Both the position numbers and the translations under genes were made by a program. The notes beneath the pieces are model-generated. The model did not search any database. It was not told the origin of the DNA and saw nothing but the letters and a program-made list of their open reading frames with translations. A stretch of DNA of 25,825 nucleotides from a virus: positions 1 to 25,825 of IMG/VR virus record IMGVR_UViG_3300020172_002340. One strand, 5' to 3'. Shown one piece after another: positions 7,963 to 23,124 of this stretch (positions within the stretch are counted from its first letter, which is position 1; each line of letters opens with the position of its first letter).

Positions 7963-8223
7963 TTAATTTTTATACGCAATTGATACTGCTAAAACATCTG
8001 ATCCAGCATCCAATTGTAATGTTTCTGTTATTTTTTTTTCTAATATTATTTCTGAATTGTTTAACATTGTAAAGGTTCCTACATTTGATCCTGCGCCATC
8101 TGCAATAATAATTTTGTGTTCTTGTGCGCCAGTATGAACTAATCTAACCACAACAGCATTATTAACTGTTGTGTTAGAGGATGCTCTAAGAGGAAATTCA
8201 TTGCCTAAAACTTTTATTAACAT
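7963..8223 (-). CDS. Small beta-rich conserved phage protein
   Basis: An 86-residue protein starting MLIKVLGNEF. The ATG at 8223 shares its A with the stop of the upstream gene (TAATG), which is preferred over an in-frame GTG at 8235. The sequence alternates hydrophobic and polar residues (VVVRLVHTGAQEHKIIIADG, VGTFTMLNNSEIILEKKITE, VLAVSIAYKN), suggesting a small beta sandwich. I recall similar short proteins in many T4-like aquatic phages near virion genes. Function unknown; a capsid or tail accessory protein is plausible. Confidence 0.7.
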   Translation of the reverse strand: MLIKVLGNEFPLRASSNTTVNNAVVVRLVHTGAQEHKIIIADGAGSNVGTFTMLNNSEIILEKKITETLQLDAGSDVLAVSIAYKN

Positions 8224-8540
8224 TAACAATTCCACTTTCTTAATGCTTTGTTGATACGGCTATCTGGATCATTGGCAGTTTTTGCTGATGTTAAACGCTT
8301 CTTCATACCACCCATACGAGCGCAGAATGATTTACGGCGATTTGCTGCCTTTGAACCTGGCTTCAATTTGCTTGGCTTTGTTGTAACTGCCATAGAAAGT
8401 TTTGAACCTGGATTCTCACGGCGATATGATTCAATACCTTTACGATTCAAACCGCCAGATTCAGATTTACCTTCTTTGCGTTGCCATGCAGCAACTTCAT
8501 CTAAGGCTTCTTCTGTGATAAATGATTTAAAAGATTTCAT
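8223..8540 (-). CDS. Small basic protein with capsid-targeting-like N-terminus (DUF6321-like)
   Basis: A 105-residue, strongly basic protein. The N-terminus MKSFKSFITE closely resembles the capsid-targeting peptide of T4 internal proteins and ends in I-T-E, a gp21-type cleavage site. The rest (AAWQRKEGKSESGGLNRKGI, SYRRENPGSKL, RRKSFCARMGGMKKRL, DSRINKALRKWNC) matches the pattern I associate from memory with the DUF6321 family, found in phages and some eukaryotic viruses. After cleavage the mature protein would be a basic, possibly DNA-bound head protein. It begins in an ATGA overlap with the large polyprotein. Biochemical role unknown. Confidence 0.75.
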   Translation of the reverse strand: MKSFKSFITEEALDEVAAWQRKEGKSESGGLNRKGIESYRRENPGSKLSMAVTTKPSKLKPGSKAANRRKSFCARMGGMKKRLTSAKTANDPDSRINKALRKWNC

Positions 8541-11071
8541 CCTATTGGCCTTTTAGCTTTAAATGTTTTAATGTTGATACCTTTTTGTTTCAATACATTA
8601 TCATTAAAATCACTCATTGATGTAGCATCTTCACCACCAGCACCAATTGCTTCTTCAAATGGTTTTTTATTTTGTTTTGTTTTCAATGACGGCCTCTGTG
8701 CATTTTCTCCACCTGCCGACATTGATAAACCAGGTTCAATGCCTTTGTCAATTGATTCTTTTACTTTTTCTTTTTGGCGGGAGCGGATTTGCCCAAGCGT
8801 GATTTTTGTGGTTGGGGTTTCTTTGTTGGTGCCTTGGATTTCGGTGCCTGTGCCTTTGGCGTATTCGTTGGCGCTGGTAAGCTCGGTGTAACCTTCTGAG
8901 ATAAGTTGTCTGCTCTCTCCTGTGCTACTCTGGTTGATCCGTCTAGCGGATGAGTTTGACTCTCTGATTTGCCAAAAAGGTTTTTGATTAGGTTCAACAT
9001 CTTCATTCTCCTCATTTAATTTAATAACATAGCCATTTTTATAAGGCATGACTGTACCATTACTTGTATGTGCTTCTCTTGCAGCTGCAGCACGAAGCAT
9101 AAATGTTCTTACTTTACCACTTTTATCTTTTAGAAGTTTAATTTCTTTTTTCTTTTCTTCTTCTAATTCAATCTCATCGATTCGTGTACCAAGCAATAAG
9201 AGGTTTAATGATGAAGAATCGGACAACTGATATGATTCTGATAATTTACCTTTGCCAAAGTTAGATACATTAATTGGTGCACCTTTACGCTCTGGATTTG
9301 GATCATGTCGGCGTTTGGCAGAAACAGCAGATGCTCGTTCTTTCTTACTCAACTTAGCACGCTTTTCATTCGACATACATTTTGGTTTTGCTTCGCCTGG
9401 TTCACGAGCACATGGACCAATTGCTTCGCCTTTGCTGTTGATTCTTTTCCATCCACCTTTTGGATGTTTTGGATCAAACCATTGGCGCAAATCTTCGGTG
9501 AATACTTCTTCAAATTCTTCATTGACACCTTTCTTTGGTGCACCAGAAGAACTCGATACAGGAATATTTGGTTGCTGTGGTTCTTCTCTCTGTACCTCAA
9601 CAAGTTTATCATGGATAGAACGATATGTAACTTTACCATTTTTACCGTAGCGGCCAAATCCATAATAAGTTAATCCTAATTTTCTAGCTTCTTCAGCAGC
9701 TCCAGAACCTGGATGTGGTGGCATTTCAGCACCTTCTTTTGGTACAGGCAATTTATCTGACAAATCTAATTCATGTGCAACCCATAAAGATGCCGCTTCT
9801 GATTTTGGTGGATCTGCTACGAATTGTTGGATATTTTTAAACAACTCTGTCATTTCATCTTTTTTAGCTTTAACAACATCCGGTGCGGCCGCTCTTAAAT
9901 CTTCTGAGTTATCAAATTCAACATAACGATCACCAAACATTTTTGCTAATTCTGGTCTTGCGTTCTGAACTGCTTCCCATTTTTGACGGCGAATATCTTC
10001 TGGTACTGTTCTACCGCCACGTTGTCCTCTTTCAACATTTCTTTGTGCTGATACTTCATCATTTGTATTCACCATAATCATTGAAGTATCGTAACCAATT
10101 TCTTCTAAGCGGTCTTTAATGCGACCAATCTTTTCATGGTCATCACCTGTGCCGTTAATGATAAGACCATTACGACCCATCAATGCTAAACGCTGACGCA
10201 ACTCAGTCATATTTTTGGCTTTACCACGAACAACATCACGCTTTTCTTTTTCAGCTTCAGGCATTGTTTTGTCAAGACCTTCTTTGTCCATCAAAAACTC
10301 TAAAGCTTTATCTGAATTGATTTCTGTAAGACCGTGACCATCGAGTGTGTTGCTAAGAACATAATCTTTACCAGAACCAGGACCACCTGCTAAAAAAACT
10401 GCTTTGAAAATAGCCTTATCATGCACACCTTCAATAAGCAATTCTTGAAAATCTTCGTTTACATCTTCGTTCATTCCCATGCCTTTGCGAACATGGTTAA
10501 ACATTTCTTTTGCGTGAGCATCAGTCATCGCTGAAGGAACACCTTTGCGAAATTCTTTGTAATTGCCATTTGAAGCATGCTCACGCATTTTGCTTGCTGA
10601 CATACCTTCTACACCTTCGGCATCTGGATCACGCTCACCGGCAGAATGAACTTCAATGTGTTTAAAGTTATAAGAACCATGTGGTCCTTTTACGCCATTA
10701 TATTTGTGTAGAAGTTTATGATATTCATCGGCACGGTCTGAGCCGCCAACCATGTGGAAATTTGTTACACCTTGTTTGTGTAACTTTGCGGCTTGTGCTA
10801 AGAAATTTGGTGCAGATGCGTCAGATGAAGATACATTGACGCCAGGAAAAGCACGCTTAGCATGCTTGAGTTTTTGTGCGGGAGAAAGAGGATTTTTCTT
10901 TGGATCTTGTGAGTGCGAAACAACGATATGTGCAGAACCACCAACTTTTTTGGCAATTTCTTGTACTTTATTGACAAGTTTTTCATGGCCAACTGTAATT
11001 GGGTTCATACGCCCAAAGGCCATTACTGCATGTTTTTCTTTCTGCTCTAGCAGAAAATCGCTAAATTTCAT
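8537..11071 (-). CDS. Large modular precursor: adenylyltransferase-like, P-loop kinase and small modules
   Basis: An 844-residue protein with a strong GGGAGAGAT ribosome binding site behind a TATAAATA promoter. It starts MKFSDFLLE, a T4-like capsid-targeting peptide ending in L-L-E. Domain 1 (about 13-195) is a nucleotidyltransferase of the NMN/pantetheine-phosphate adenylyltransferase superfamily: FGRMNPITVGHEKL contains the T-x-G-H motif (26-29) and SASKMR (158-163) the second signature. LIE (212-214) separates it from domain 2 (about 219-400), a P-loop kinase of zeta-toxin type with Walker A GGPGSGKD (229-236). Further units: LGLTYYGFGRYGKNGKVTYR (465-484); after FTE (524-526), DLRQWFDPKHPKGGWKRINS ... 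C554 ... C565 ... RRHDPNPERKGAPINV (527-602); a segment at 640-690; ISE (724-726); and a tail with EAIGAGGEDATSMSD. It may be cut by the prohead protease into several packaged proteins; substrates of the two enzymes are unknown. Confidence 0.83.
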   Translation of the reverse strand: MKFSDFLLEQKEKHAVMAFGRMNPITVGHEKLVNKVQEIAKKVGGSAHIVVSHSQDPKKNPLSPAQKLKHAKRAFPGVNVSSSDASAPNFLAQAAKLHKQGVTNFHMVGGSDRADEYHKLLHKYNGVKGPHGSYNFKHIEVHSAGERDPDAEGVEGMSASKMREHASNGNYKEFRKGVPSAMTDAHAKEMFNHVRKGMGMNEDVNEDFQELLIEGVHDKAIFKAVFLAGGPGSGKDYVLSNTLDGHGLTEINSDKALEFLMDKEGLDKTMPEAEKEKRDVVRGKAKNMTELRQRLALMGRNGLIINGTGDDHEKIGRIKDRLEEIGYDTSMIMVNTNDEVSAQRNVERGQRGGRTVPEDIRRQKWEAVQNARPELAKMFGDRYVEFDNSEDLRAAAPDVVKAKKDEMTELFKNIQQFVADPPKSEAASLWVAHELDLSDKLPVPKEGAEMPPHPGSGAAEEARKLGLTYYGFGRYGKNGKVTYRSIHDKLVEVQREEPQQPNIPVSSSSGAPKKGVNEEFEEVFTEDLRQWFDPKHPKGGWKRINSKGEAIGPCAREPGEAKPKCMSNEKRAKLSKKERASAVSAKRRHDPNPERKGAPINVSNFGKGKLSESYQLSDSSSLNLLLLGTRIDEIELEEEKKKEIKLLKDKSGKVRTFMLRAAAAREAHTSNGTVMPYKNGYVIKLNEENEDVEPNQKPFWQIRESNSSARRINQSSTGESRQLISEGYTELTSANEYAKGTGTEIQGTNKETPTTKITLGQIRSRQKEKVKESIDKGIEPGLSMSAGGENAQRPSLKTKQNKKPFEEAIGAGGEDATSMSDFNDNVLKQKGINIKTFKAKRPIG
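8761..9000 (-). CDS. Candidate overlapping gene nested in the large precursor
   Basis: A second reading frame inside the large precursor encodes 79 residues starting MLNLIKNLFGKSESQTHPLD and ending in a Pro/Ala/Lys-rich tail (KAPTKKPQPQKSRLGK, then APAKKKK). GAGGAG lies exactly 7 bases before this ATG. Over the same bases the host frame uses many C-ending codons (GCC, AAC, GGC, ACC), unlike the A/T-ending codons elsewhere in this window, and its peptide there is Ser/Asn/Gln-rich. Those third positions are the second positions of the nested codons, so constraint from the nested frame would explain the bias. Two further in-frame ATGs lie at 9015 and 9006. Function unknown. Confidence 0.38.
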   Translation of the reverse strand: MLNLIKNLFGKSESQTHPLDGSTRVAQERADNLSQKVTPSLPAPTNTPKAQAPKSKAPTKKPQPQKSRLGKSAPAKKKK

Positions 11072-11826: not shown

Positions 11827-12536
11827 TAATATCTCTCCTTTTCATATGTACCAGCAATAATGCCAAAACATTTTATTCTATCAAATTCAACAATATGTTT
11901 TTTGTCTAAACACAAATAATGAGCATGTTCTGTATCAATGCCATGTGACATAACATTACTTATCATTGGTCCTATTGTTTGTAAATAATTATCCAACAAA
12001 GATGGACAAAAAGAATACATCCGTGTGATGTACAGATGGTCCGTAATAGTTCTTTTTCTTTCTTCTGGCATCCATGATGGTAGTGATTTTTTAAAAACAT
12101 ATTTTCCAAATTTGTTATTATATTCAGTAATATCAAAATCATCTTCTAATAATGATCTTGCAGAAAACTTAAATATTCTTTTAACTCCGTGTAAAAAACC
12201 CATCAATTCAGGATTGTTTTTGAATTGTATAAGTGTGTTTAGTAACAATAAAAGTTCGGCTTCATTTTTTCTGCCGGCCAAAGCAAAAGATTTAATTTCT
12301 GGATGGCTGCTAAACCAAAGAGCTTCGCAATATTTATTGATCAGTTCTTTCGTTTCTTTTGGTACATTTTCTGGTGAACCGTCAACAAAAAGAACAGCTG
12401 CATCGGGAACTTTATCTCTAAGATTATCCAATGTTGCAATAGTTTGTTCCAATCGTTCTTTTTCTCCAATAGTGCCAATTTTAGCATTTAAAGCTGAAGT
12501 GATAATGAATAAATTTCTGGTTGGTATTATTGTCAT
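11826..12536 (-). CDS. Glycosyltransferase-like protein, paralogue B
   Basis: A 236-residue protein. The ATG at 12536, one base after the oxygenase stop, is preferred over an in-frame ATG at 12557 because it gives MTIIPTRNLFIITSALNAK, which aligns with the start of the neighbouring paralogue. Features: a beta-strand start (LFIITSALN), LFVDGSP (49-55), and RIFKFSARSLLEDDFD (120-135), reminiscent of K-x-S-x-R-Y/S ... D-x-D stretches in GT-A-like proteins of phage and capsule clusters. The C-terminal third (ITRMYSFCPSLLDNYLQ, CLDKKHIVEFDRIKC) is nearly identical to the copy at 13316-14029. Cytoplasmic. A transfer reaction in glycan assembly fits the context, but no characterised family member is recognised. 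Confidence 0.72.
   Translation of the reverse strand: MTIIPTRNLFIITSALNAKIGTIGEKERLEQTIATLDNLRDKVPDAAVLFVDGSPENVPKETKELINKYCEALWFSSHPEIKSFALAGRKNEAELLLLLNTLIQFKNNPELMGFLHGVKRIFKFSARSLLEDDFDITEYNNKFGKYVFKKSLPSWMPEERKRTITDHLYITRMYSFCPSLLDNYLQTIGPMISNVMSHGIDTEHAHYLCLDKKHIVEFDRIKCFGIIAGTYEKERY
11867..11909. repeat. 43-base direct repeat, copy 1 (in paralogue B)
   Basis: These 43 bases are identical to 13357-13399, exactly 1490 bases away in the same orientation. Flanking sequence continues to align without gaps, with scattered differences, through about 12020 (a 26-base identical block at 11995-12020 matches 13485-13510). The similarity covers the 3' halves of the two paralogous genes, while their 5' halves have diverged more. 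Recombination between copies would delete the 2OG-oxygenase gene and fuse the paralogues. Confidence 0.9.
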
Positions 12537-12537
12537 T

Positions 12538-13314
12538 TTATATACGATAAACTTCACTAGAGGTTTCAGAATTTGCTCTTTTTTTAATTAACTCTATTAT
12601 TTTTGAGTCGTTGATTTGCTCCTTGTGTGGAGCAAAAAGAGCTCTATCGTGTTTTTCAGCTTCTTCTCTTGGAGAAGAAACATAGTATATTGCTAAAGAT
12701 TTTCTATATATTCCTTCAGGACAATTAATTGAATCAGGAAGACCATGCCAAGAATTTTGAGTGGTATCAAAAATTACAGCTCGGTTAAATTCATTTGAAA
12801 TTCGTTTAATACAATTTTTTGGTAATTTTTTTTCTTCATCGTTTGACCAAAATTCTAATCCTCCACCCCATTCATTTTGCCAGTTGGGGGTCATATACAT
12901 AATAATATTAATTCTTCTCTCCATTTTTAACTTTGGATGAATTGAATAATCTTTGTGTATATTTAATTTACCATTTCGGCCGTGCATATGCCATCCTCCG
13001 CCATGTAAACCATAATCAGCAATTAGATTATTGATTCCTGTAATTTTTTTAATTTTTTCTAAAAATACATCGCTATTCATTAGAGAAAAAATTTGATAAG
13101 TTGTTTTTGGAAATAAATTCCAGTTAGAAGAAGCTCTTTTGTTTTCAATTGGGTTATCATAAATCGACCAAAGGGCATCATCATAATCAGGAAATTCCAA
13201 AGCTAATTTTAAAGCAATCTCTTTTTCAAAAAAATTATCAATTATACAATGTGAAAATGGTTCTGAATTTTTAAATGTTTTTTGTAAATTTTCATAATCA
13301 AATTCATTGATCAT
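12538..13314 (-). CDS. 2-oxoglutarate/Fe(II)-dependent oxygenase
   Basis: A 258-residue protein of the double-stranded beta-helix oxygenase superfamily. Iron ligands are visible as H120-x-D122 (KLNIHKDYS) and H190 (SWHGLP), with R204 (YRKSLAIYY) in place to bind 2-oxoglutarate. The core between them has RRINIIMYMTPNW and WGGGLEFW, as in prolyl-4-hydroxylase-like enzymes found in phages and polysaccharide clusters. The ATG at 13314 lies one base after the previous stop and 6-7 bases after GGAGAGAT; an in-frame ATG at 13350 would overlap the upstream gene by 35 bases and is not favoured. It sits between two duplicated glycosyltransferase-like genes, so hydroxylation of a sugar or cyclitol is a reasonable guess. 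Substrate unknown. Confidence 0.88.
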   Translation of the reverse strand: MINEFDYENLQKTFKNSEPFSHCIIDNFFEKEIALKLALEFPDYDDALWSIYDNPIENKRASSNWNLFPKTTYQIFSLMNSDVFLEKIKKITGINNLIADYGLHGGGWHMHGRNGKLNIHKDYSIHPKLKMERRINIIMYMTPNWQNEWGGGLEFWSNDEEKKLPKNCIKRISNEFNRAVIFDTTQNSWHGLPDSINCPEGIYRKSLAIYYVSSPREEAEKHDRALFAPHKEQINDSKIIELIKKRANSETSSEVYRI

Positions 13315-13315
13315 T

Positions 13316-14029
13316 TTAATATCTCTCCAATTGACCAGAATTTGAAACAATTCCAGAACATTTTATTCTATCAAATTCAACAATATGTTTTTTGTCTAAG
13401 CAAAGATGATGAGCATGTTCAAAATCGATTCCGTATTTTACAACACTATTTAACATTGGTTCAATTAATTGTAAATAATTATCTAACAAAGATGGACAAA
13501 AAGAATACATTCTTGTAATATAGAGGCAATCAGTTATATGTTTTTTTCTTTCTTCTGGCATCCATGATGGCAAAGGTTTTTTAAACACATATTTACCAAA
13601 AAGACCATTATATTCATCAACATCAAAATCATCTTCTAAAAAACTTCTTGCTGAAAATTTAAAAATTCTCTTAACTTCATATAAAAACTTCATAAATTCA
13701 ACATTTTGTTTAAATAAACAAAAAACATTAAATAACAAACAAAATTCAGCTTCACTTTGACGGCCAACCGAAGACATTGCATTTATATCTGGATGTTGAC
13801 CAAACCAAATACATTGGCAGTATTGACTAATTATTTTTTTAGTTTCTTCTGGTATTGGATCAGGAGAACCATCCACAAGAAGTAAAACTGCATTAGGTAC
13901 CTTTTGTTTTAAATTAAGTAATGATTCGACCGTTTGTTTTAATCTTTGATTACTGTTAACGACTCCTCTTTTTGAATTTAAAGCAGATGTTACAATAAAC
14001 AAATTTTTATCAGGAATTATTGATGCCAT
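13316..14029 (-). CDS. Glycosyltransferase-like protein, paralogue A
   Basis: A 237-residue protein paralogous over its whole length to the product of 11826-12536. It shares the start (IIPDKNLFIVTSALNSK), LLVDGSP, the RIFKFSARSFLEDDFD segment, SWMPEERK, RMYSFCPSLLDNYLQ and the C-terminal CLDKKHIVEFDRIKC. It has no export signal or membrane segment. The last codons (ER Y stop) include GGAGAGATATTAA, which also serves as the ribosome binding site of the following oxygenase gene; paralogue B is built the same way before the methyltransferase. It overlaps the dehydrogenase stop by 13 bases. Function by context: sugar transfer or a related step in the cassette. Confidence 0.72.
   Translation of the reverse strand: MASIIPDKNLFIVTSALNSKRGVVNSNQRLKQTVESLLNLKQKVPNAVLLLVDGSPDPIPEETKKIISQYCQCIWFGQHPDINAMSSVGRQSEAEFCLLFNVFCLFKQNVEFMKFLYEVKRIFKFSARSFLEDDFDVDEYNGLFGKYVFKKPLPSWMPEERKKHITDCLYITRMYSFCPSLLDNYLQLIEPMLNSVVKYGIDFEHAHHLCLDKKHIVEFDRIKCSGIVSNSGQLERY
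13357..13399. repeat. 43-base direct repeat, copy 2 (in paralogue A)
   Basis: Identical to 11867-11909 in the same orientation. It encodes the same C-terminal segment of the two duplicated glycosyltransferase-like proteins (LDKKHIVEFDRIKC). Confidence 0.9.
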
Positions 14030-14685
14030 TCTATATCCGGAAAAAGTTTAATTGTTTTATATTCTACATTTTGCTGACTATCACAAATAAATGCAATAAG
14101 TTTAGCAATTTCTTTTGGATCTAAAAGTTTTGTCAAATCATCGTGAAAATCAGAACCACTCCATAATGAAGTATTAATACCTCCAGGATGAATACTCGTA
14201 ACTTTTATTTTTCTTTTCTGTAATTCTTTACTTAACACACCAGCAAATCCTGTAAGGCCATGCTTTGAAGCACAGTAAATAGATTGATTTTCTAATTCTT
14301 CTAAACCTGCTACAGAATTGATAAAGATTATCCTACTTGGTTCTTTCATTAAAGGCAATAGATATTTGGTGACATAAATTGATCCTTTCAAATTGGTATC
14401 AATAATTCTATCGATTACATTTAATTCTGTATTCTCAAAATCAATATATTCAAAGTCAGCTGAGTTATTAATTAATAAATCAATTTCATCTTTAACGTCA
14501 TACTGAACCAATACTTTAATTAAATCAGCGTTAGTAATATCACATTCTAAATGACGATAGTAATGATGTTTAATAACTGAAGGAGTTCTAGACATACCAT
14601 AAACTTTCCAACCAATTTCGATTAGATGTTTTGCGATTTCTAGGCCTACACCACTCGTTGTTCCAGTTATAAATGCTGTTTTCAT
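14017..14685 (-). CDS. Short-chain dehydrogenase/reductase (SDR)
   Basis: A 222-residue classical SDR. The dinucleotide-binding motif is TGTTSGVG (7-14). The NNAG-type motif appears as NNSAD (73-77). The catalytic tetrad is N98 (DTNLKGS), S124 (FINSVAG), Y137 and K141 (YCASK), followed by HPGGINT, which helps close the cofactor site. R33 after the second strand (GMSRTP) suggests a preference for NADP(H). Such enzymes interconvert hydroxyl and keto groups of sugars and cyclitols. The gene starts in an ATGA overlap with the cyclase gene just upstream, so it probably acts on the cyclase product or a later keto intermediate; that link is inferred from position. Confidence 0.9.
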   Translation of the reverse strand: MKTAFITGTTSGVGLEIAKHLIEIGWKVYGMSRTPSVIKHHYYRHLECDITNADLIKVLVQYDVKDEIDLLINNSADFEYIDFENTELNVIDRIIDTNLKGSIYVTKYLLPLMKEPSRIIFINSVAGLEELENQSIYCASKHGLTGFAGVLSKELQKRKIKVTSIHPGGINTSLWSGSDFHDDLTKLLDPKEIAKLIAFICDSQQNVEYKTIKLFPDIEWHQ

Positions 14686-15815
14686 AATTCTTCAAAAATT
14701 GCTATTGCTTTTTCTATATCTTTGTCAGTCAAATCGTTTATAAATTTATAATTGCCAATATCAATCGGTATAGGAATATATTGATTACCGTTGCGATGCT
14801 TCATTGTATCAGATAATGACTTTTTAAGCAAGTCTATATTGGTAAAATCGTTATGAAAAGTAGGTAATCTTAACTTTCCTGCAACATTGAAAATGCGCTT
14901 GGCGATTTCTCTATTGATATGCCCACGGCTATATGAAATACAAGCAGAAAATAAACAATCTAGTACAACCGCTTCACCGTGTAATAAGTTTGGTATATTT
15001 GCCATTTCTATAATTGGACTAAAAGTGTGGCCATAATCTACACAGCGGTCTAACTTTTTCTCCCATAGATTTGGTGCCAACTCATCGATCATATCAGAAA
15101 TGGCAAGATTAATAACACGAACAGGAACAGCACCAAACTGAAACTTCTCATTGATAAGTTGATCATAATTTTCTTCCAATAACACAAATAATTCTTTAGA
15201 TTTGATAACTGCAAGTTTAAAAATTTCTGCAATGCCGTTTATGATTTCTCTTTCGTCTTGCGTTTTAATAAACTTTTTATCTATGAGAGTTGCAATTGGT
15301 GGATAATAAGCACCAATACGATTACGCCTTTCAAAATGATTCGCAGCTACTTTTACACCAACTGAGGCATCTACAATTGCTAAAAGAGTTGTTGGCACTT
15401 TGATATATGGAATGCCACGGCGATAGATACTGCAACAAAAACCAACCAAATCAAGTAAGACACCGCCACCAATTACAATTACTGGCTCTCGGCGTAAAAC
15501 GCCTTCATCTTCAAAAAACCGTAATATTTCATTGGTGTGTTGCCAATCTTTATTGGCTTCAGTTGCATCAATGATGTATAAACGACAATCAATTTTTAAA
15601 GTTTTAAAGTAGTTCGATATTTTTTCACAATATAATTTATATACATTCTTATCTACAACAACAATTCTACGATCACCTGTTCCATAGGATATCAAATCGT
15701 GATTGGCCGGATCAAATACATTGTTTGAATAATGTATTGTAAAAGATACAGGCAAAGTAGCATTAACTTGCCATGTTCTCTTTGAATTATTAAAATCAAT
15801 TAACAAATCGTTCAT
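14682..15815 (-). CDS. Sugar phosphate cyclase, 2-epi-5-epi-valiolone synthase type
   Basis: A 377-residue member of the dehydroquinate synthase-like superfamily, which cyclises sugar phosphates with NAD+ and a divalent metal. Seen: the NAD-binding GGGVLLDLVGF (116-126); VPTTLLAIVDASVGVKVAAN (140-159); metal ligands E197 (NGIAEIFK), H263 (YGHTF) and H279 (LLHGEAV). Several positions favour the EEVS branch (2-epi-5-epi-valiolone from sedoheptulose 7-phosphate) over AroB: RNRIGAYYPP where AroB has a KN-x-x-G-x-F-x-QP pattern, ELAPNLWE, RCVDYGHTFSPIIEMA where AroB has GHTFAHAIE, and YRRGIPYIKVPTTL. EEVS enzymes supply the C7-cyclitol core of acarbose, validamycin and related compounds. The neighbouring kinase and nucleotidyltransferase genes fit that route. 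The exact product (EEVS or a related cyclase) cannot be fixed by eye. Confidence 0.87.
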   Translation of the reverse strand: MNDLLIDFNNSKRTWQVNATLPVSFTIHYSNNVFDPANHDLISYGTGDRRIVVVDKNVYKLYCEKISNYFKTLKIDCRLYIIDATEANKDWQHTNEILRFFEDEGVLRREPVIVIGGGVLLDLVGFCCSIYRRGIPYIKVPTTLLAIVDASVGVKVAANHFERRNRIGAYYPPIATLIDKKFIKTQDEREIINGIAEIFKLAVIKSKELFVLLEENYDQLINEKFQFGAVPVRVINLAISDMIDELAPNLWEKKLDRCVDYGHTFSPIIEMANIPNLLHGEAVVLDCLFSACISYSRGHINREIAKRIFNVAGKLRLPTFHNDFTNIDLLKKSLSDTMKHRNGNQYIPIPIDIGNYKFINDLTDKDIEKAIAIFEEL

Positions 15816-16786
15816 ATAAAAATCTTACTGAATAGTTTACAGGCATGAAGATAGAAATACTTAGCGTGGTCGTAATTACCAGCTGCACACTTGAATGGCA
15901 ACATACGAATAAATTGTGTTGCTTCTAAAACATCTACAATTTTCTTTGTTCTTGATTCCACCAATTCAGAAGTAAATAACTCATTGAACTGTCTAAAATT
16001 ATCTGATGGTTGAATATCATTACACCAAACTTTGGAATTTTCTACATTGATTGGTTGATTATTGAAGTGTTCGTATAAGCTGTGTGAACTTTGTAACACC
16101 ATCGAATAATCTAAAAATCTACTGTCAATGATACTTTCTTCATATGGGTCAACAAACACAACCATATCGTCAACAAAAGAATATAATGTATTTTCTAATG
16201 TTGGATTGCCATGAATACATTCTTCGTTGATCAAATTCATTTCTGTAAAAAAGTTTCTCAATTCATCCATAAAATTGGTAATGCCATGAACAATTTCACC
16301 ATTTAATTCATATGTTCCATGAGAATAGAATTTATTAAACTCATCGAACTTATTTGCATCGATAAGTTTTTGTTCAATTTCTTCTTTGAAATAAAGTAAA
16401 GCTGCACCAGAATTTGGCACATAATCAATACGATGCAATTCTTTGAAAGCATTCCATAAAGCATGGTTAATTTTCTTTAACTCATGTTCAGACAAATCAC
16501 GACCAGAAAGAATGGTGTATAAGTCAGAATAACCATCCATGTATTGTAAATCAAAATATGCATCTTCTTTTTCATAAGATACATTTAATACTTTAGGAAA
16601 CAACCTAGGAAATTCTGTGTTATATCGTTGGAGTTTTTTTAATTGAGAGTACCAGCGAACATAACCATATTCTCTGTTCTCTGTTAGAGATACAGTTTTT
16701 CGTATGAATTTCTTATTGTCCTGTTCAATTAAGTATGTCGAACTTAATGAACCGCCTTTTAGTTTTGTCTGCCTACTATTGACCAT
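15812..16786 (-). CDS. APH/choline-kinase-fold phosphotransferase with an altered HxD motif
   Basis: A 324-residue protein of the aminoglycoside phosphotransferase-like fold. The N-lobe has a glycine loop (LKGGSLSSTYLIEQ) and a lysine in KKFIRK. The C-lobe catalytic loop reads IHGNPTLENTL (191-201), and the metal motif VFVDPYEES (210-218) is followed by DYSMVLQSSHSLYE. In active relatives the loop is H-x-D-x-x-x-x-N; here the Asp position is N194, clearly an AAT codon. The enzyme may use another base, act on a different substrate, or have lost activity. APH-like kinases often pair with nucleotidyltransferases in capsule clusters, as here, where the upstream gene overlaps by 28 bases. A cyclitol or sugar kinase role is inferred from the cassette. 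Confidence 0.78.
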   Translation of the reverse strand: MVNSRQTKLKGGSLSSTYLIEQDNKKFIRKTVSLTENREYGYVRWYSQLKKLQRYNTEFPRLFPKVLNVSYEKEDAYFDLQYMDGYSDLYTILSGRDLSEHELKKINHALWNAFKELHRIDYVPNSGAALLYFKEEIEQKLIDANKFDEFNKFYSHGTYELNGEIVHGITNFMDELRNFFTEMNLINEECIHGNPTLENTLYSFVDDMVVFVDPYEESIIDSRFLDYSMVLQSSHSLYEHFNNQPINVENSKVWCNDIQPSDNFRQFNELFTSELVESRTKKIVDVLEATQFIRMLPFKCAAGNYDHAKYFYLHACKLFSKIFI

Positions 16787-17499
16787 TTTGCTATTTCTAA
16801 TCCATATTCTTGTGGTGAACCAAGAACAATAGTTTCTTCTCGGTTGTTCAATTCATTTGTTACAATAAGTTTTCTATCATTCAACATGAGAGCTAAAACA
16901 TCGGCAATATACATCTCTGATTTGGTAAAATCTTTTTGTAATTTGTTAAAGTATTCTTGGTATAGTTCAGCCGTCTTAAAACAATACAAACCAGAACTTG
17001 CAAAAGGAGAAATAGGATTCTTTTCTACAATTTCTATGACCCTATCTCCCTCTTTCTTTACATATGAATACTTAGGATTATTTGCAACAAATACATCTAC
17101 AAAAGCATCCGCTGTTTTTAACATTTCTATAATGTGATTAAAATTTCTAAATGTTAAATGTGTATCTGCATTATGAACAAAAATTGGTTCATTACTTTTT
17201 GCAATAGTAGAACCAATGTATGCAGTATGCGCCTGACCGTTTGTATCTCCAATATAGTGAATATTAGTTTCATCTAAACCAATATGTTTAATTGCATCAA
17301 CTAAACTTTTTCTAAAATATAAGTCCCTTTTGTTTGCTAACAATATTATATTTGCAAATTTATGTCTTGTTTGAAATTCATTAATAATTGAATGAATGAT
17401 GCAGCTGCCACGCCAAGGTAACAAATACTTTGGCATATCAAAACCAACATCATGGAATCTGGTGTTTAGACCAGCCATGCAAATAATTAACGAGCCCAT
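16759..17499 (-). CDS. Sugar-1-phosphate nucleotidyltransferase-like protein
   Basis: A 246-residue GT-A-type nucleotidyltransferase. The nucleotide-binding signature is MAGLNTRF ... MPKYLLPWRG (8-31), a variant of G-x-G-x-R-x ... PK. Other motifs: DTNGQAHTA (85-93) for base and phosphate contacts, HNADTHL (109-115) with the metal-binding D112, VEKNP (157-161), ASSGLYCF (166-173) and SEMYIADVLALML. Length equals the catalytic domain alone. It would activate a phosphorylated sugar or cyclitol as an NDP derivative for the transferases next to it. It overlaps the kinase by 28 bases and the upstream transferase by 13. Nucleotide and sugar specificity cannot be read from the sequence. Confidence 0.87.
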   Translation of the reverse strand: MGSLIICMAGLNTRFHDVGFDMPKYLLPWRGSCIIHSIINEFQTRHKFANIILLANKRDLYFRKSLVDAIKHIGLDETNIHYIGDTNGQAHTAYIGSTIAKSNEPIFVHNADTHLTFRNFNHIIEMLKTADAFVDVFVANNPKYSYVKKEGDRVIEIVEKNPISPFASSGLYCFKTAELYQEYFNKLQKDFTKSEMYIADVLALMLNDRKLIVTNELNNREETIVLGSPQEYGLEIAKWSIVGRQN

Positions 17500-18197
17500 T
17501 GTTCAAAATCCTCACGCAGTAAAGAGTGCCATGTGCCATTGTATGGGCCTGGTGGAAATGGATGATTAATATTACAATAAACCAAGTTTTCTCCAACCAT
17601 ATTAAAATGTTTCCAATTTTCACTCATCAAATCTTCACACATCATCTGAGTACCACGATCATAGTGATAATCAATAAAATCAAAAGCCTTTGCATATTTG
17701 TTCATATTTTCTGACGATGAAAAGGCAAATTGATCGTTACCAAAATCTCTTTGTGGTGTCATGCGACAATTTGGAATATAAAGTTTACTATTGTCCAATT
17801 CAGTAAAAGGTATTGTAGCATTGATAGCAAAATCAAAACGAGAACGTATGACCCAATCGAAAATAATAGAGTTTTCTTCTTCATAAATGGTTTTTAATTC
17901 ATTACATTTTTTAATAGCATATAACTGTGCATATGTTGATAACGCTGGATTTTTTACTTTCCAATTAGGTTGCGGTGGAGGAACTCTTGTATATTTTGAT
18001 AAGTCTGGATTAATTGGTTCTTCAACCATCATCGCTTCAGGCTTATAAAGTTCAAAAGCTTTTTTTGTTTCTGGTGATTCCCATGTGTGTATAAAAACAG
18101 TTACATCATTATTGTTAATGATGTTTTGTTTATGGTATTCATATCCTTTTTCTACACAACGAGGTTGACCTGTAATACATAATGCAATTTTAGCCAT
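17487..18197 (-). CDS. Glycosyltransferase-like protein (virus/phage type)
   Basis: A 236-residue protein beginning MAKIALCITGQPRCVEKGYE, a start found in a family of putative glycosyltransferases of phages, large viruses and capsule clusters. VFIHTWES follows, then WVIRSRFDFA (115-124), where the R-x-R-x-D takes the place of a D-x-D-like metal/nucleotide motif. NDQFAFSSSENM (154-165) and a C-terminal acidic/aromatic end complete the fold. No signal peptide or membrane helix is visible. The gene overlaps both neighbours by 8-13 bases, in the same block as the nucleotidyltransferase. Donor and acceptor unknown. Confidence 0.75.
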   Translation of the reverse strand: MAKIALCITGQPRCVEKGYEYHKQNIINNNDVTVFIHTWESPETKKAFELYKPEAMMVEEPINPDLSKYTRVPPPQPNWKVKNPALSTYAQLYAIKKCNELKTIYEEENSIIFDWVIRSRFDFAINATIPFTELDNSKLYIPNCRMTPQRDFGNDQFAFSSSENMNKYAKAFDFIDYHYDRGTQMMCEDLMSENWKHFNMVGENLVYCNINHPFPPGPYNGTWHSLLREDFEQWAR

Positions 18198-19029
18198 ATT
18201 TTGCCTCTAATATTTTTTTCCAATTAGGAATTCTATCATATTGATGAACAATTGTAAAGGGTATCCCGGTAGATGTTGTAACAATATCATCATTTATTTT
18301 TGGCTCGGCTTCAATTAAAAATGGTCTGAATTGTTCAATCTTAGTTGGATCTCCAGTTGTGCCAAGTTGTGCAGCCCAAGCATCTTCTGACCGCAAATAC
18401 ACCGAGGTTTCTTTATATGGCGACATTGAAATCATAAAGTTAAATGTGGATTGGTCACAAATAGGAATTGGTTTGCCTTGTGTAGAAACAAAGATATTAC
18501 AAATCAAATCACGAACAGCATGACCACGACCAGCAAGAACACCCACATTATAAATTTCATTGTCTTTAAATTTACTGTAAATGAATTCACCAAAAGTTTG
18601 AAGCAGATTTTCGTTTCCCCATGGTTCATCTTTGTAATACATGCTTTCAGAAGCAAACATTAGATTTTTATCGTCTGTTAAAGCTTTTTCCATGTAATCA
18701 ATTGGATTTTGTTGAAAGACAACATCTTTCACATCGGTAGTAACAACATACCGATATTCGTTCTGTGATAGGAAGTTATAGATGTGCAGAAATCTTTCCA
18801 CATGTGGCGCCCGGCCAGTTTGTGGATAAGTTAAATTGCCTTGAGAGTCTTGTTGAAAACCTACGACTTTGAATCCCGCATCAGATACTTTTTTTACCGT
18901 ATCTTTGTCGCAGTTCATTAGAATCAGGACCTTGTCGCCTTGGAATCCTGATTTGTTGATTGAATTTACCCAATATTTTAGGATATTCCAATCATAGTTT
19001 GTTGCACCACCAATTATCAAATCTTTCAT
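18190..19029 (-). CDS. Glycosyltransferase-like protein, GT-A fold
   Basis: A 279-residue protein. The N-terminal half has a nucleotide-sugar-type fold: DLIIGGATNYDWNILKYWVN, GDKVLILMNCD and YRYVVTTDVKDVVFQQNP (92-109), in which D99-V-K-D102 is a D-x-x-D-type metal motif at the usual place. FASESMYY, GVLAGRG, ICDQSTFNFM and a C-terminal TIVHQYDR-x-P (His near the end) are also usual in such enzymes. A good GAGGT ribosome binding site precedes the ATG, and a 21-base gap separates it from the upstream gene, so it may be the first gene of the accessory cassette. Acceptor unknown; it could decorate virion protein, DNA or host surface glycan. Confidence 0.8.
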   Translation of the reverse strand: MKDLIIGGATNYDWNILKYWVNSINKSGFQGDKVLILMNCDKDTVKKVSDAGFKVVGFQQDSQGNLTYPQTGRAPHVERFLHIYNFLSQNEYRYVVTTDVKDVVFQQNPIDYMEKALTDDKNLMFASESMYYKDEPWGNENLLQTFGEFIYSKFKDNEIYNVGVLAGRGHAVRDLICNIFVSTQGKPIPICDQSTFNFMISMSPYKETSVYLRSEDAWAAQLGTTGDPTKIEQFRPFLIEAEPKINDDIVTTSTGIPFTIVHQYDRIPNWKKILEAKYG

Positions 19030-19386: not shown

Positions 19387-19658
19387 TAACCCCTCGTCAA
19401 CTTTAATATTTTTTGCATTTGTTTTTCAATGATTGGTCCACGATTTGGCCAATGAATGTATGGTTGACTAGCAGACTTATATAGATTGGTTAGAAAAGGC
19501 ATAATAATTTTTTCTACTTGATCTAGCCTTGCTTTGTATTCTTCTACTGTTTCATCTTTTTCTGCAATAACTGCTTGATATTCAGCTTCATCGACCGTAG
19601 TAAAGCCAAAATCGTCTTCACCATATTCTTTGAGAATGTCGTTGATATTGTAAGTCAT
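19386..19658 (-). CDS. Small conserved phage protein with a YIHWPNRGP motif
   Basis: A 90-residue protein. The ATG at 19658 shares its A with the upstream stop (TAATG) and has GGGA 6 bases before it; it is preferred over an in-frame TTG at 19670. The N-terminal half is acidic, the middle (EEYKARLDQVEKIIMPFLTN) is helical, and the C-terminus has YIHWPNRGPIIEKQMQKILK and ends LTRG. This C-terminal pattern recurs in short proteins of T4-like phages. Function unknown; it is coupled to the DUF6267-like gene before it. Confidence 0.7.
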   Translation of the reverse strand: MTYNINDILKEYGEDDFGFTTVDEAEYQAVIAEKDETVEEYKARLDQVEKIIMPFLTNLYKSASQPYIHWPNRGPIIEKQMQKILKLTRG

Positions 19659-20884
19659 TATTTGTCCCAATTCTTTGCTGCATTAAAGTTTGCTTGACTA
19701 AATTCTAAACGGTCAACCAATTTAACTGCATTACCTTTTAATCTATCTACCGCAACAAAACCTTCTGGTGCAGTAATTCTAAATCCATCATCTGTTTTTA
19801 CAAATGTACCAATTGATTTGACTGTTTCTAACTTACGAACAATCATCAGTTTTGCATCTACTAATAGATTCTGTAAATCAAAGATGGATCGTAATTGTGC
19901 TGCATTTTGACGGAAGAACCGCATGAGTTCTGTTTTAGCGGCAATTCGTTTTCTCTTTGTTTCTTCTTTCTTTACATCAGCAATATCTTTATTTAGCTTC
20001 GCCTCAACCCAGCGAATCAATTCTAATGTGTGCTGATTTGTATTACTAATCTTTTTACCTTCACGCACTTTAGCATTATTAAAAGTCTTAATGTAAGTTT
20101 TAATTATTTCGTTAGAGGCTATACGATTCAAAGTCATCGATGAAATGCTTTGAAATGTGCGACCTGCTAAAGAAAGTATTGTGGTAAGTTGTTTCGTTTC
20201 TTCTTCTGTGAATGTAGCAGAACCAGAAGTGTCTACAAATGAAGCATCACGGAACCAAACATCTTTGGTATTTGTAAGACCTCCAAGGTCAACATTGAAA
20301 GATGCCTTCATATCTTGCATCTTTTTACCTGTGTATGATGTGTGAAACACCACACCAATCTGTGCATCTAGCATTGAACGAGCCAATTTTATATCAGAAG
20401 GCACCGCATAAACAATCGTGTTTGGTTGAAATGTAATGTATGATTCACCACCAATAACTTGTTTCTTAATATCGCCTTTTGTGAACATCATATCACCTTG
20501 CAAGACACCTTTGATGCCAAGTTTTGGTAGATAACGCAAGGCTACTTTGAGTTTTTGATTGAGGCCTTCTGTTGGATGATTGTTGTCAATATCTTCATCT
20601 GTGTAGTTTAATTTTGGATTGACATTGAATACGCCTTTGGTGCCAACAAAGAATTTACCATTCTCAGGATTAACACCAGCAAAAATAGCAGGCGCACCAT
20701 CCCATTTGGTCGTAACATTTACTTTTGATTCGGCATTACCTGCCAACATATTGCGAAGTGATTGTAGAAAGTTAATGGCAGACCTGGCACCAGATATGCC
20801 AAAATTTAGAACTTCATCCTCAATATGCTCAAGGTGAACATTCTTACCTTCTTTACCTTCTGTTAAGTATTCTGTGAAATTCAT
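19658..20884 (-). CDS. DUF6267-like phage protein with ligase-like motifs and a head-targeting N-terminus
   Basis: A 408-residue protein. The start MNFTEYLTE resembles a T4 capsid-targeting peptide ending in L-T-E, so it may be packaged and trimmed. The following region (NVHLEHIEDEVLNFG, INFLQSLRNMLAG, TTKWDGAPAIFAG) matches the family I know from memory as DUF6267, widespread in T4-like phages. TKWDG at 59-63 has the K-x-D-G form of motif I in DNA/RNA ligases and mRNA-capping enzymes (K60 as the nucleophile). GVLQGDMMF (126-134), APEGFVAVDR (372-381) and AVKLVDR (386-392) stand where motifs III, IV and V of that superfamily would be. A nucleotidyltransferase role is therefore an inference, not an established function. 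It overlaps both neighbours by TAATG junctions. Confidence 0.8.
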   Translation of the reverse strand: MNFTEYLTEGKEGKNVHLEHIEDEVLNFGISGARSAINFLQSLRNMLAGNAESKVNVTTKWDGAPAIFAGVNPENGKFFVGTKGVFNVNPKLNYTDEDIDNNHPTEGLNQKLKVALRYLPKLGIKGVLQGDMMFTKGDIKKQVIGGESYITFQPNTIVYAVPSDIKLARSMLDAQIGVVFHTSYTGKKMQDMKASFNVDLGGLTNTKDVWFRDASFVDTSGSATFTEEETKQLTTILSLAGRTFQSISSMTLNRIASNEIIKTYIKTFNNAKVREGKKISNTNQHTLELIRWVEAKLNKDIADVKKEETKRKRIAAKTELMRFFRQNAAQLRSIFDLQNLLVDAKLMIVRKLETVKSIGTFVKTDDGFRITAPEGFVAVDRLKGNAVKLVDRLEFSQANFNAAKNWDK

Positions 20885-21990
20885 TAGCTATACTTTATAA
20901 AAATACTACTGTTTTTTGTAGCAGATGAAGCATATTCAAAAATGTATTTACAAAAATCATCTTCTTTTTTAGATTGCAATACTGCGTATACTAAACTAAT
21001 TCCAAGATATTTGGACATCCACCAAGTTTTATCTTTTCTATGACCAGCTTTTGCTTGCATTATTAAACTATCTAAACTGTCTTTAGATTTTGACAAGTAT
21101 TTAAACATTGTAGCAAATTCTTTGAAATCAGAATCTTTTGGTTTTTCAATTGGTACTTGATTGGGTTGTGTCAATTTCGTTCTAGGAACTCCAGATTCTA
21201 TAGCACCAGACATTATAACTCCGCCACCAATTTTTCCGCCTGCAGCACTTTTACCTTTAATTTCTCCTTGCCAAGAAGATGGTTGTGGTCTACTAGAAAA
21301 ATTACGAAATTGAATTTCGCCATCAACACCTTCTGATTTATATTGTATGTAAATATCTTTTGAATCAAACATATTTGCGCCGAGTTTTATCCCTCTAAAC
21401 TGTGCTATGAGTGGTTTACCATTATTAAAAATCTTAGAATGTGCTTCAGTTGCTTTTGGGTCTAACTTTTTTAAAGAAATGCCAATCAAATTGGTTTTTG
21501 CAAACTCATCATAAATGTAACGGTTATAATCTCTAAGTGTTGGCCATCCTTCTTTCAATCTAAAATCTTTTTTAGCCATCCAAATATCAGCAGGATTCCA
21601 TTTGTCATCACCAGAAATGCCACTATCTTTTTTAAATTGTCTCCATTGACCGTAAATGGAATCTACAAATCTACCACCACGATAAAATTTAAATCTTTTT
21701 CCTGTTTTAGCACTAGGTACTTCTTCAAAAATTTTATTTGCTGTTTTTACAATACTGAGAAACCATTTTTCATCGAGGCCTTTCATACATTGTTTTAGTG
21801 TTCTATCGCAATCAGCATCAGCGATTGTTCTTTCTGTAACCTGAGATATATCACCAAGAGGTTTACCATAATGTTGTCTAGTTGCACAAGCATATGCCTG
21901 CAAAGATTCTGCTAATGCGGTCACTTCTGCACCAGCACCAGATTGACTTGAATTATCAGTATTGACTTTAGTAGGAATTTTCATATTCAT
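20884..21990 (-). CDS. Conserved phage protein, possible nuclease-type fold
   Basis: A 368-residue protein with an N-terminal low-complexity stretch (NTDNSSQSGAGAEV) and a central segment KWNPADIWMAKK (130-141) followed by LIGISLKKL (168-176). The spacing of P-A-D and S-L-K recalls PD-(D/E)xK nuclease cores with a substituted acidic residue, seen in some restriction enzymes; this is tentative. A Gly-rich loop (GGKIGGGVIMSGAIESGV) follows, then a mainly helical C-terminus with HRKDKTWWMSKYLGISLVYA. AGGA lies 7 bases before the ATG at 21990. Proteins with NPADIW and GISLKK strings occur in T4-like aquatic phages beside the DUF6267 gene. Function not established. Confidence 0.75.
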   Translation of the reverse strand: MNMKIPTKVNTDNSSQSGAGAEVTALAESLQAYACATRQHYGKPLGDISQVTERTIADADCDRTLKQCMKGLDEKWFLSIVKTANKIFEEVPSAKTGKRFKFYRGGRFVDSIYGQWRQFKKDSGISGDDKWNPADIWMAKKDFRLKEGWPTLRDYNRYIYDEFAKTNLIGISLKKLDPKATEAHSKIFNNGKPLIAQFRGIKLGANMFDSKDIYIQYKSEGVDGEIQFRNFSSRPQPSSWQGEIKGKSAAGGKIGGGVIMSGAIESGVPRTKLTQPNQVPIEKPKDSDFKEFATMFKYLSKSKDSLDSLIMQAKAGHRKDKTWWMSKYLGISLVYAVLQSKKEDDFCKYIFEYASSATKNSSIFIKYS

Positions 21991-22008: not shown

Positions 22009-23124
22009 CTATCTGATAATGTCAATCTCCTTATCACCAGTCCAAACTTCTATCTCTGTTCTCAGTCGATTTTCTGTCTGAAGTGTTGTAAATCTACTAC
22101 AAGCCTTCTTTTTCCACCACTCTACGATGTTTTCTAAGTGGTGTTTATCGTAGTTTTCCTTGTCTGGTACAAGTTTATCTATCTTTCCTAGTACCACATC
22201 TTTAAAGTTGGAAAAGCCATAGTTTGAATAATAGTATCGTTTTCTTTCAGTCAAACCTTTGGCCTTTTCAATAGTGTTCATAAACAAGTCATAATCACTT
22301 TTATGATTCTTTAATGCTGATTTGGTCATAGCAATAATTGTGGTACTAATTTTAAGTTTACGACTACTTGCATCAGCAGGAACAAATTCGCCTACAATAT
22401 CTTCAACATAGTTCTTTAAATCTTCATAAGGTTTGCCGTGCATCATTGGTAGAAAATTGGATTCAGTTACACCACCAAATCGCAAATAAGGTTTCATACC
22501 ATCGTACTGTGATACGGCTTTTGTGGTGCCATATAAACTGGTCGTTTCAAACAAGCAAGTATTCATATTATATTTTTTGTCCAGCATCTCTCTTACTTCA
22601 TGTGAACAACAGATACCTGCAAGTAACTTTCCGCCAAGATAATTGAAACCAAAAGGCTGTGCTGGCACAATAACAAATCCCATAGCTGAAGCCCGATTGA
22701 AAGCTTTTGTTGTTTCTAGTTCGTTTGTCATTACACAACCAAGAAGTTCATTTCTTGGTTTCATCATAATCGTTGGAGAACCAAGACGAATAAAACCAAC
22801 CCACTTCTTCGTTTTCTTTTCCATTACAGCAAGGCGTATATTTCGGCCAGGACTACTAAGGTTGTTGTGTGATGAAATTATATCCAAATATAACTGCCAT
22901 CTTGCTGATTCTAATTCAACAACTTCAAACTCCATGTCTTGTGGGTTTATAGTGAAGTCATCAAATAAATCTGCTTCAGGTCCACAACCAGGTAGAGCAA
23001 AAGGCAACTCAGCAAGAGAGTTTAGTTTCTGCTCACGCATATATTCATCAATGCGATTGAAATCGCCAAAATAATCTTCAAAGACCTTAGCACAATGTAA
23101 GGCCTGATCATAATTCAAACTCAT
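22009..23124 (-). CDS. DUF4338-like conserved phage protein
   Basis: A 371-residue protein. The central region, RNELLGCVMTNELETTKAF, FVIVPAQPFGFNYLGGKLLA (151-170), GICCSHEVREMLDKKYNMNT, LFETTSLYG and YLRFGGVTESNFLP, follows the pattern I associate from memory with DUF4338, the family of Druantia component DruA and of other phage and mobile-element proteins. It has no membrane or export signal. The ATG overlaps the helicase stop (ATGA), so it is coupled to gp41, and in related phages this gene also follows gp41. That points to a role in DNA replication or processing. The biochemical activity is unknown. Confidence 0.72.
   Translation of the reverse strand: MSLNYDQALHCAKVFEDYFGDFNRIDEYMREQKLNSLAELPFALPGCGPEADLFDDFTINPQDMEFEVVELESARWQLYLDIISSHNNLSSPGRNIRLAVMEKKTKKWVGFIRLGSPTIMMKPRNELLGCVMTNELETTKAFNRASAMGFVIVPAQPFGFNYLGGKLLAGICCSHEVREMLDKKYNMNTCLFETTSLYGTTKAVSQYDGMKPYLRFGGVTESNFLPMMHGKPYEDLKNYVEDIVGEFVPADASSRKLKISTTIIAMTKSALKNHKSDYDLFMNTIEKAKGLTERKRYYYSNYGFSNFKDVVLGKIDKLVPDKENYDKHHLENIVEWWKKKACSRFTTLQTENRLRTEIEVWTGDKEIDIIR

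What the first reader, a model, noticed from the sequence alone, without database searches (positions are those of the whole stretch)
19658..20884. DUF6267-like protein may be a ligase-superfamily nucleotidyltransferase
K60-W-D-G63 has the form of ligase motif I (K-x-D-G). LQGDMMF, EGFVAVDR and VKLVDR follow in the order of motifs III, IV and V, with a lysine in the last. The predicted head-targeting leader suggests a packaged enzyme that might seal or cap nucleic acid early in infection.
Basis: inference. Interest (0 to 1): 0.62.

Follow-up and report, generated by a model that had tools for sequence, protein, structure and literature searches.

The report
Divergent ligase-like enzyme of marine phages
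A protein of unknown function (DUF6267), common in T4-like water phages that mostly lack every recognisable DNA or RNA ligase, carries the invariant active-site signature and predicted core fold of the enzymes that join nucleic acid ends, and in this phage it also has a tag for packing into the virus head, so it may be their unrecognised ligase.

Summary
The 408-aa minus-strand ORF at 19658-20884 is DUF6267 (PF19782). In 111 diverse relatives K60, D62, G63, K83, D131 and H181 are invariant; E374, G375, V377 and K388 are invariant in all 110 rows that reach them. Motif order and predicted secondary structure fit the ligase nucleotidyltransferase domain. Foldseek with a compact homologue (pLDDT 90) returns ligases or capping enzymes in 37 of the top 50 PDB rows, including the first 14, though none is individually significant (E > 0.1). 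Motif IV-V spacing (11-15) matches T4 Rnl1 (mostly 13), not DNA ligases (22). Profile-profile scores alone are marginal. Seven of eight complete DUF6267 phage genomes checked lack PF01068, PF01653, PF09414 and PF09511; a 2010 review left an unrecognised cyanomyovirus ligase open. The head-targeting leader is real: it matches T4 IPIII, recurs on three more window proteins, and the adjacent HIGH-type cytidylyltransferase that bears it was found in two cyanophage virions. Differences from known ligases: Asp in motif III, one Lys in motif V, a helical insert, no recognised C-terminal domain. Substrate, cofactor and activity are untested. Verdict: new variant of a known kind, most like Rnl1/RLIG1.

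The parts
19658..20884 (-). DUF6267 protein, predicted ligase-superfamily nucleotidyltransferase (408 aa)
   Evidence: PF19782 387.5 bits; phrog_455; AlphaFold model pLDDT 84.9, pTM 0.80
20855..20884 (-). Leader MNFTEYLTEG, predicted head-targeting sequence with L-x-E type prohead-protease site
   Evidence: Pattern present in 70 of 106 relatives ahead of the first conserved motif against 3 matches in 40,649 body positions; T4 IPIII starts MKTYQEFIAEA; residues 1-13 low-confidence in the model
20696..20707 (-). Motif I, K60-W-D-G63; K60 predicted to form lysyl-nucleotide
   Evidence: K, D, G invariant in 111/111
20633..20644 (-). Motif Ia, G-T-K83-G; equivalent of T4 Rnl1 S-K119-G
   Evidence: K83 invariant 111/111; Rnl1 sequence
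20492..20500 (-). Motif III, Q129-G-D131
   Evidence: D131 invariant 111/111, Q 110/111; strand 127-135 in model
20408..20425 (-). P154-N-T-I-V-Y159 strand, equivalent of Rnl1 T-N165-R-I-V
   Evidence: P, N, T, Y invariant; aligned with the RNA ligase profile
20333..20347 (-). Motif IIIa candidate, F-H181-T-S-Y184
   Evidence: H, T, Y invariant; RLIG1 motif IIIa uses His195 (PMC11494293)
19829..20206 (-). All-helical insert (residues 227-352) between motifs IIIa and IV
   Evidence: DSSP of model; shorter in cyanophage homologues
19754..19765 (-). Motif IV, E374-G-F-V377
   Evidence: E, G, V invariant in all 110 rows that reach it; strand 375-380
19709..19723 (-). Motif V, K388-L-V-D-R392
   Evidence: K388 invariant 110/110, R392 109/110; IV-V spacing 14
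8537..11071 (-). Partner protein (844 aa): leader MKFSDFLLE, HIGH-superfamily (NMNAT/cytidylyltransferase-like) domain about residues 13-205, P-loop kinase domain about 220-440, two internal leader-like sites at 208 and 520
   Evidence: Pfam and PHROG; leader scan; relatives directly downstream of DUF6267 in 159 of 327 loci and fused to it in S-PM2
20884..21990 (-). Co-conserved upstream gene (phrog_1462, 368 aa), unknown; K-W-x-P-x-D-I ... G-x-S-L-K pattern suggests a PD-(D/E)XK-like nuclease (inference)
   Evidence: Directly upstream in 103 of 327 loci; invariant columns; no Pfam or PDB match

Best explanation
DUF6267 is a divergent, compact member of the covalent nucleotidyltransferase (ligase) superfamily, closest in motif spacing to the Rnl1/RLIG1 type of RNA ligase. 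Proposed mechanism: K60 attacks the alpha phosphate of a nucleotide cofactor (most likely ATP) to form a lysyl-AMP; K83, D131, H181, E374 and K388 hold the nucleotide and the metal; AMP passes to a 5'-phosphate end and a 3'-OH closes the break. Shown here: the motifs, their invariance, order and structural placement, the leader, the partner gene, the absence of other recognised ligases in most host phages. Inferred: catalysis, cofactor and substrate. The likeliest substrate is broken RNA (tRNA repair in the manner of T4 Rnl1), with DNA nick or end sealing the main alternative. In this phage the leader predicts that the enzyme is packed in the head with its HIGH-domain/P-loop-kinase partner, so it could act as soon as DNA enters the cell.
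For: Motif residues invariant across 111 relatives. AlphaFold models of the window protein and a compact homologue put motif I on a strand-loop-strand, motif III on a strand after two helices, IV and V on neighbouring strands. Foldseek against PDB with the compact homologue: 37 of the top 50 rows, including the first 14, are DNA ligases, RNA ligases or capping enzymes of many families; the viral library gives the family itself and then several RNA ligases. Profile alignment with a mixed RNA ligase profile puts motifs I, Ia and III and the N-x-I-V strand in register. IV-V spacing 11-15, as in Rnl1 (mostly 13), not 22 as in DNA ligases. RLIG1 shows that a single-domain enzyme without the Rnl1 C-terminal domain ligates RNA (PMC11494293). 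Seven of eight complete DUF6267 phages have no other recognisable ligase.
Against: No single Foldseek hit is significant (best E 0.12, probability at most 0.30), and no hmmscan or PDB sequence search finds a ligase. Profile-profile scores are marginal: E 0.0036-0.0086 against 0.013 for the best unrelated family and 0.0045 for the best of 150 block-shuffled profiles, and the score falls to 0.047 when the profile is trimmed to well-occupied columns. Motif III has Asp where known members have Glu; motif V lacks the second Lys. DLP6 has both DUF6267 and a DNA ligase.
Confidence: 0.72

Rival explanations
1. It is the missing DNA ligase of T4-like marine phages, sealing Okazaki fragments or DNA breaks rather than RNA.
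For: Homologues lie in the replication cluster, just after uvsX and gp41 and before gp61 in S-RSM4; 7 of 8 genomes have neither ATP- nor NAD-dependent DNA ligase; reviewers noted that g30 homologues are not found in cyanomyoviruses and might be unrecognised distant homologues (PMC2984593).
Against: IV-V spacing and the N-x-I-V strand are Rnl1-like, not DNA-ligase-like; no OB fold with motif VI is seen; head packaging is not needed for a replication enzyme; host ligase can substitute, as the same review says; DLP6 has a separate DNA ligase.
Confidence: 0.2
2. It is an NAD+-linked enzyme: it takes AMP from NAD+, and the adjacent or fused HIGH-domain protein (NMNAT-like) regenerates NAD+ from the released NMN.
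For: The HIGH domain is directly downstream in 159 of 327 loci and fused in S-PM2; an invariant H-x-x-H-x-x-D block precedes motif I; HIGH plus P-loop kinase is the NadR layout described in PMC9503650.
Against: No match to the NAD-ligase adenylation domain; the N-terminal block was not shown to be domain Ia; the HIGH domain's substrate is unknown and found no NMNAT in PDB by sequence.
Confidence: 0.1
3. It uses the ligase fold for another transfer, such as GMP capping of RNA 5' ends or nucleotidylation of a protein.
For: Capping enzymes are among the Foldseek hits; Asp in motif III and a single motif V lysine are unusual for ligases.
Against: IV-V spacing is Rnl1-like; I know of no phage capping system of this kind; no OB fold or triphosphatase seen nearby.
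Confidence: 0.1
4. The motifs are coincidental and DUF6267 has another fold, for example a head-internal structural protein.
For: No significant sequence or single structural match; leader suggests a virion component.
Against: About ten invariant polar positions in ligase order; none of 57 unrelated families shows the pattern; ligases dominate the structural hits; family members without a leader keep the motifs.
Confidence: 0.1

Closest known systems
T4 RNA ligase 1 (Rnl1, PF09511)
   Same: Motifs I-Ia (TKEDG...FKSKGS vs TKWDG...VGTKGV), N-R-I-V strand after motif III, EGYVAV...FK vs EGFVAV...VK, IV-V spacing 13 vs 14
   Different: No detectable PF09511 match; Asp for Glu in motif III; K-L-V-D-R for K-I-K in motif V; helical insert before motif IV instead of a C-terminal helical domain; longer I-Ia and I-III spacing
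RLIG1 (C12orf29) and viral homologues
   Same: Single-domain ligase without the Rnl1 RNA-binding domain; basic motif Ia residue; His in motif IIIa; IV-V spacing 13; Lys253 is the motif V lysine named (PMC11494293)
   Different: Motif III Glu, motif Ia Arg; no helical insert described; no leader. Sequence relation to DUF6267 was not tested
Rnl2 family and minimal bacterial RNA ligases (PF09414)
   Same: Profile alignment in register over motifs I, Ia, III
   Different: E 0.0086 only; T4 Rnl2 IV-V spacing 21 (invariant E204 and K225)
ATP-dependent DNA ligases (PF01068)
   Same: K-W-D-G also occurs as motif I in sampled bacterial members; several of the best Foldseek hits
   Different: IV-V spacing 22; OB domain with motif VI absent here; no profile match beyond motif I
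T4 internal proteins (IPIII leader)
   Same: N-terminal F/Y-x-x-F-L/I-x-E leader
   Different: Mature part is a predicted enzyme, not a small internal protein

Membership tests
DUF6267 (PF19782) | Match above the curated cut-off over the whole profile | tested here: met
   387.5 bits vs 27, profile 1-376 of 376
Covalent nucleotidyltransferase (ligase) superfamily | Invariant K-x-(D/N/H)-G motif I | tested here: met
   111/111
Covalent nucleotidyltransferase (ligase) superfamily | Motif III acidic residue, normally Glu | tested here: inconclusive
   Invariant but Asp
Covalent nucleotidyltransferase (ligase) superfamily | Motif IV E-G-x-V/I | tested here: met
   Invariant in all 110 rows that reach it
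Covalent nucleotidyltransferase (ligase) superfamily | Motif V, usually K-x-K | tested here: inconclusive
   First Lys invariant, second absent; R392 at +4
Covalent nucleotidyltransferase (ligase) superfamily | Nucleotidyltransferase fold | tested here: inconclusive
   37 of top 50 Foldseek rows are superfamily members but none significant
Covalent nucleotidyltransferase (ligase) superfamily | Lysyl-NMP adduct | not testable with these tools
   needs purified protein
Rnl1 (PF09511) | Match to the family profile | tested here: not met
   PF09511 found no match in 8 DUF6267 genomes while it finds T4 Rnl1
Rnl1 (PF09511) | Motif IV-V spacing near 13 | tested here: met
   11-15, mostly 14 and 13
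Rnl1 (PF09511) | C-terminal helical RNA-binding domain | tested here: not met
   Only about 16 residues follow motif V; helices are inserted before motif IV instead
ATP-dependent DNA ligase (PF01068) | Profile match | tested here: not met
   No PF01068 match at DUF6267 loci
NAD-dependent DNA ligase (PF01653) | Profile match | tested here: not met
T4-type head-targeted internal protein | N-terminal targeting leader ending in a prohead protease site | tested here: met
   (sequence only)
T4-type head-targeted internal protein | Protein found cleaved inside the virion | not testable with these tools
   Leader-bearing partner found in S-SM1 and S-SZBM1 virions; leaderless S-SZBM1_141 (DUF6267) not named anywhere in the paper's main text or tables

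The most novel reading that the evidence does not exclude
DUF6267 and its HIGH-domain/kinase partner form an end-sealing unit that is packed in the head and injected with the genome, possibly NAD+-fuelled with the partner restoring the cofactor, and DUF6267 is the unrecognised sole ligase of the abundant T4-like marine phages.
Probability: 0.15. Interest if true: 0.82.

Novelty: new variant of a known kind. Interest (0 to 1): 0.62.

Why it matters
T4-like phages of cyanobacteria, Pelagibacter and Methylophilales are among the commonest viruses in water, and a 2010 review left open whether cyanomyoviruses carry an unrecognised ligase. A specific, invariant candidate with a named nucleophile makes that question testable at the bench with one adduct assay and one sealing assay. 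If the enzyme is packaged it would also be an unusual case of a nucleic acid repair enzyme delivered with the phage genome, and it would give a function to a large family annotated as unknown.

Tried and rejected
Sequence searches for a ligase (Pfam, NCBIfam, PDB by phmmer and hmmsearch) gave nothing. hhalign with shallow profiles of T4 Rnl2 and T7 ligase failed, but so did the positive control Rnl2 against T7 ligase, so that result is uninformative. A strong hhalign hit to a downstream cyanophage protein (E 9e-18) was rejected as a low-complexity artefact with 7% identity. The NadR/NMNAT identity of the partner's HIGH domain could not be settled by sequence search of PDB. Searching T4, T7 and PA5oct for a DUF6267 relative found none. 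No held paper names DUF6267. PADLOC finds no defence family for DUF6267, the partner or phrog_1462.

Full report
What is there. The minus-strand ORF 19658-20884 encodes 408 aa and matches DUF6267 (PF19782) end to end and PHROG 455, unknown function. The window (G000) is a virus record of 25,825 bases with T4-like replication genes upstream: UvsX, DnaB-like helicase, then a DruA-domain protein, phrog_1462, and DUF6267.

Conservation. From 327 loci I took 77 representatives below 80% identity and added diverse relatives from genome assemblies, 111 in all. K60, D62, G63, P65, K83, D131, P154, N155, T156, Y159, H181, T182, Y184 and K345 are invariant in every one. E374, G375, V377 and K388 are invariant in the 110 rows that reach them. 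Among 58 families built from the same loci, the only one with conserved K-x-D/N/H-G, then E-G-x-V/I, then K is DUF6267 itself.

Fold. AlphaFold gives pLDDT 84.9 for the window protein and 90.0 (pTM 0.86) for a compact 298-aa homologue that has a shorter helical insert. The order is strand-KxDG-strand, strand with motif Ia, two helices, strand with motif III, strands with PNTIVY and FHTSY, a helical insert, then neighbouring strands with motifs IV and V. Foldseek with the compact model lists ligases or capping enzymes in 37 of the first 50 PDB rows (my count from the printed list), including human ligases I, III and IV, archaeal and NAD-dependent DNA ligases, Naegleria RNA ligase, an archaeal RNA ligase, a trypanosome editing ligase and capping enzymes. 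Every individual E-value is above 0.1, so the support is from consistency and not from any one hit. The long model gives five such rows in 50. In the viral library the family comes first and RNA ligases appear among the weak hits.

Profile comparison. Shallow profiles were uninformative, the positive control failing too. With broader ligase profiles, two positive controls work (RNA against DNA ligases E 1.3e-7, Rnl1 against RNA ligases E 1.5e-6), though Rnl1 against DNA ligases fails (E 0.21). DUF6267 scores E 0.0086 against RNA ligases, 0.11 against Rnl1 alone and 0.0036 against RNA ligases plus Rnl1, with motifs I, Ia and III in register. Apart from a low-complexity false hit, the best unrelated family scores 0.013; none of 200 column shuffles and 150 block shuffles reaches 0.0036, but the best block shuffle reaches 0.0045 and trimming the profile drops the real score to 0.047. 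I treat this as suggestive only.

Which ligase. The spacing from the motif IV Glu to the motif V Lys is 11-15 in DUF6267 (14 in 68 sequences, 13 in 21), 13 in most Rnl1 and 22 in the DNA ligases sampled. The local sequences resemble T4 Rnl1 at I-Ia and IV-V. RLIG1 offers a precedent for a ligase with the Rnl1 nucleotidyltransferase domain and no RNA-binding domain, using K73, R89, E174, H195, E240 and K253 in its viral homologue (PMC11494293). Departures from Rnl1: Asp in motif III, no second motif V Lys, helical insert before motif IV, no PF09511 match. It therefore works like an Rnl1-type ligase by prediction, but is not filed as a member of PF09511.

Genomic vacancy. In eight complete phage genomes with DUF6267, PF01068, PF01653, PF09414 and PF09511 match only in DLP6 (one DNA ligase); T4 carries three of the four families and T7 one, so the search works. 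The 2010 review of T4-like cyanophages reports no g30 homologue and leaves open an unrecognised distant one, while favouring host substitution (PMC2984593). A later cyanophage paper, on S-CREM2, does mention a ligase (PMC10665884), so absence is not universal.

Partner and packaging. A HIGH-domain protein is directly downstream of DUF6267 in 159 of 327 loci, overlaps it in S-SM1 and is fused to it in S-PM2 (PHROG 455 covers both). In the window this partner (8537-11071) also has a P-loop kinase domain and lies about 8.6 kb downstream, beyond an inserted sugar-type gene cassette. The leader pattern F/Y-x-x-hydrophobic-hydrophobic-x-E occurs at residues 3-4 of four window proteins (4799-5230, 8223-8540, 8537-11071, 19658-20884) and matches T4 IPIII; T4 internal proteins are packed by a conserved capsid targeting sequence (PMC3012670). 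In 106 relatives 70 have it ahead of the first conserved block against 3 matches in 40,649 other positions. The leader-bearing cytidylyltransferases of S-SM1 (T4-GC190; PMC3037559) and S-SZBM1 (S-SZBM1_140; PMC9146016) were found in virions. The adjacent DUF6267 proteins there lack the leader, and S-SZBM1_141 is not named in the main text or tables of that paper. So packaging is predicted for the window's DUF6267 by its leader but has not been observed. Contamination of virion preparations by abundant proteins is a caution the S-CREM2 authors raise.

Conclusion. A divergent ligase-superfamily nucleotidyltransferase is the best reading (0.72). RNA end sealing is my first choice of reaction, DNA sealing second; NAD+ use and capping are open. 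All steps after the motif and fold evidence need the bench.

Noticed in passing
window 22009-23124 (-): A 371-aa protein with a DruA (Druantia) domain match (Pfam E 5.5e-11, PADLOC E 1.3e-7) sits inside the phage replication cluster; phrog_19197 covers it whole.
   Followed up: partly
window 8537-11071 (-): The 844-aa partner has leader-like sites at residues 3, 208 and 520 at or near its domain borders, which could mean a polyprotein cut by the prohead protease.
   Followed up: partly
window 11119-19029 (-): Inserted cassette of methyltransferase, 2OG-Fe oxygenase, SDR, 3-dehydroquinate synthase, NTP transferase and glycosyltransferase-like genes separates DUF6267 from its usual partner.
   Followed up: no
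window 4799-5230 and 8223-8540 (-): Two small unknown proteins carry the same head-targeting leader (MRFKQFMEE, MKSFKSFITEE), so they may be packaged too.
   Followed up: no
window 20884-21990 (-): phrog_1462 family has invariant K-W-x-P-x-D-I and G-x-S-L-K columns reminiscent of a PD-(D/E)XK nuclease; no Pfam or PDB hit.
   Followed up: partly
L328 (S-PM2 LN828717) 3492-5267: DUF6267 and the HIGH domain are one ORF in this S-PM2 record, while the match in the original record (AJ630128) comes in two pieces over two annotated features.
   Followed up: no
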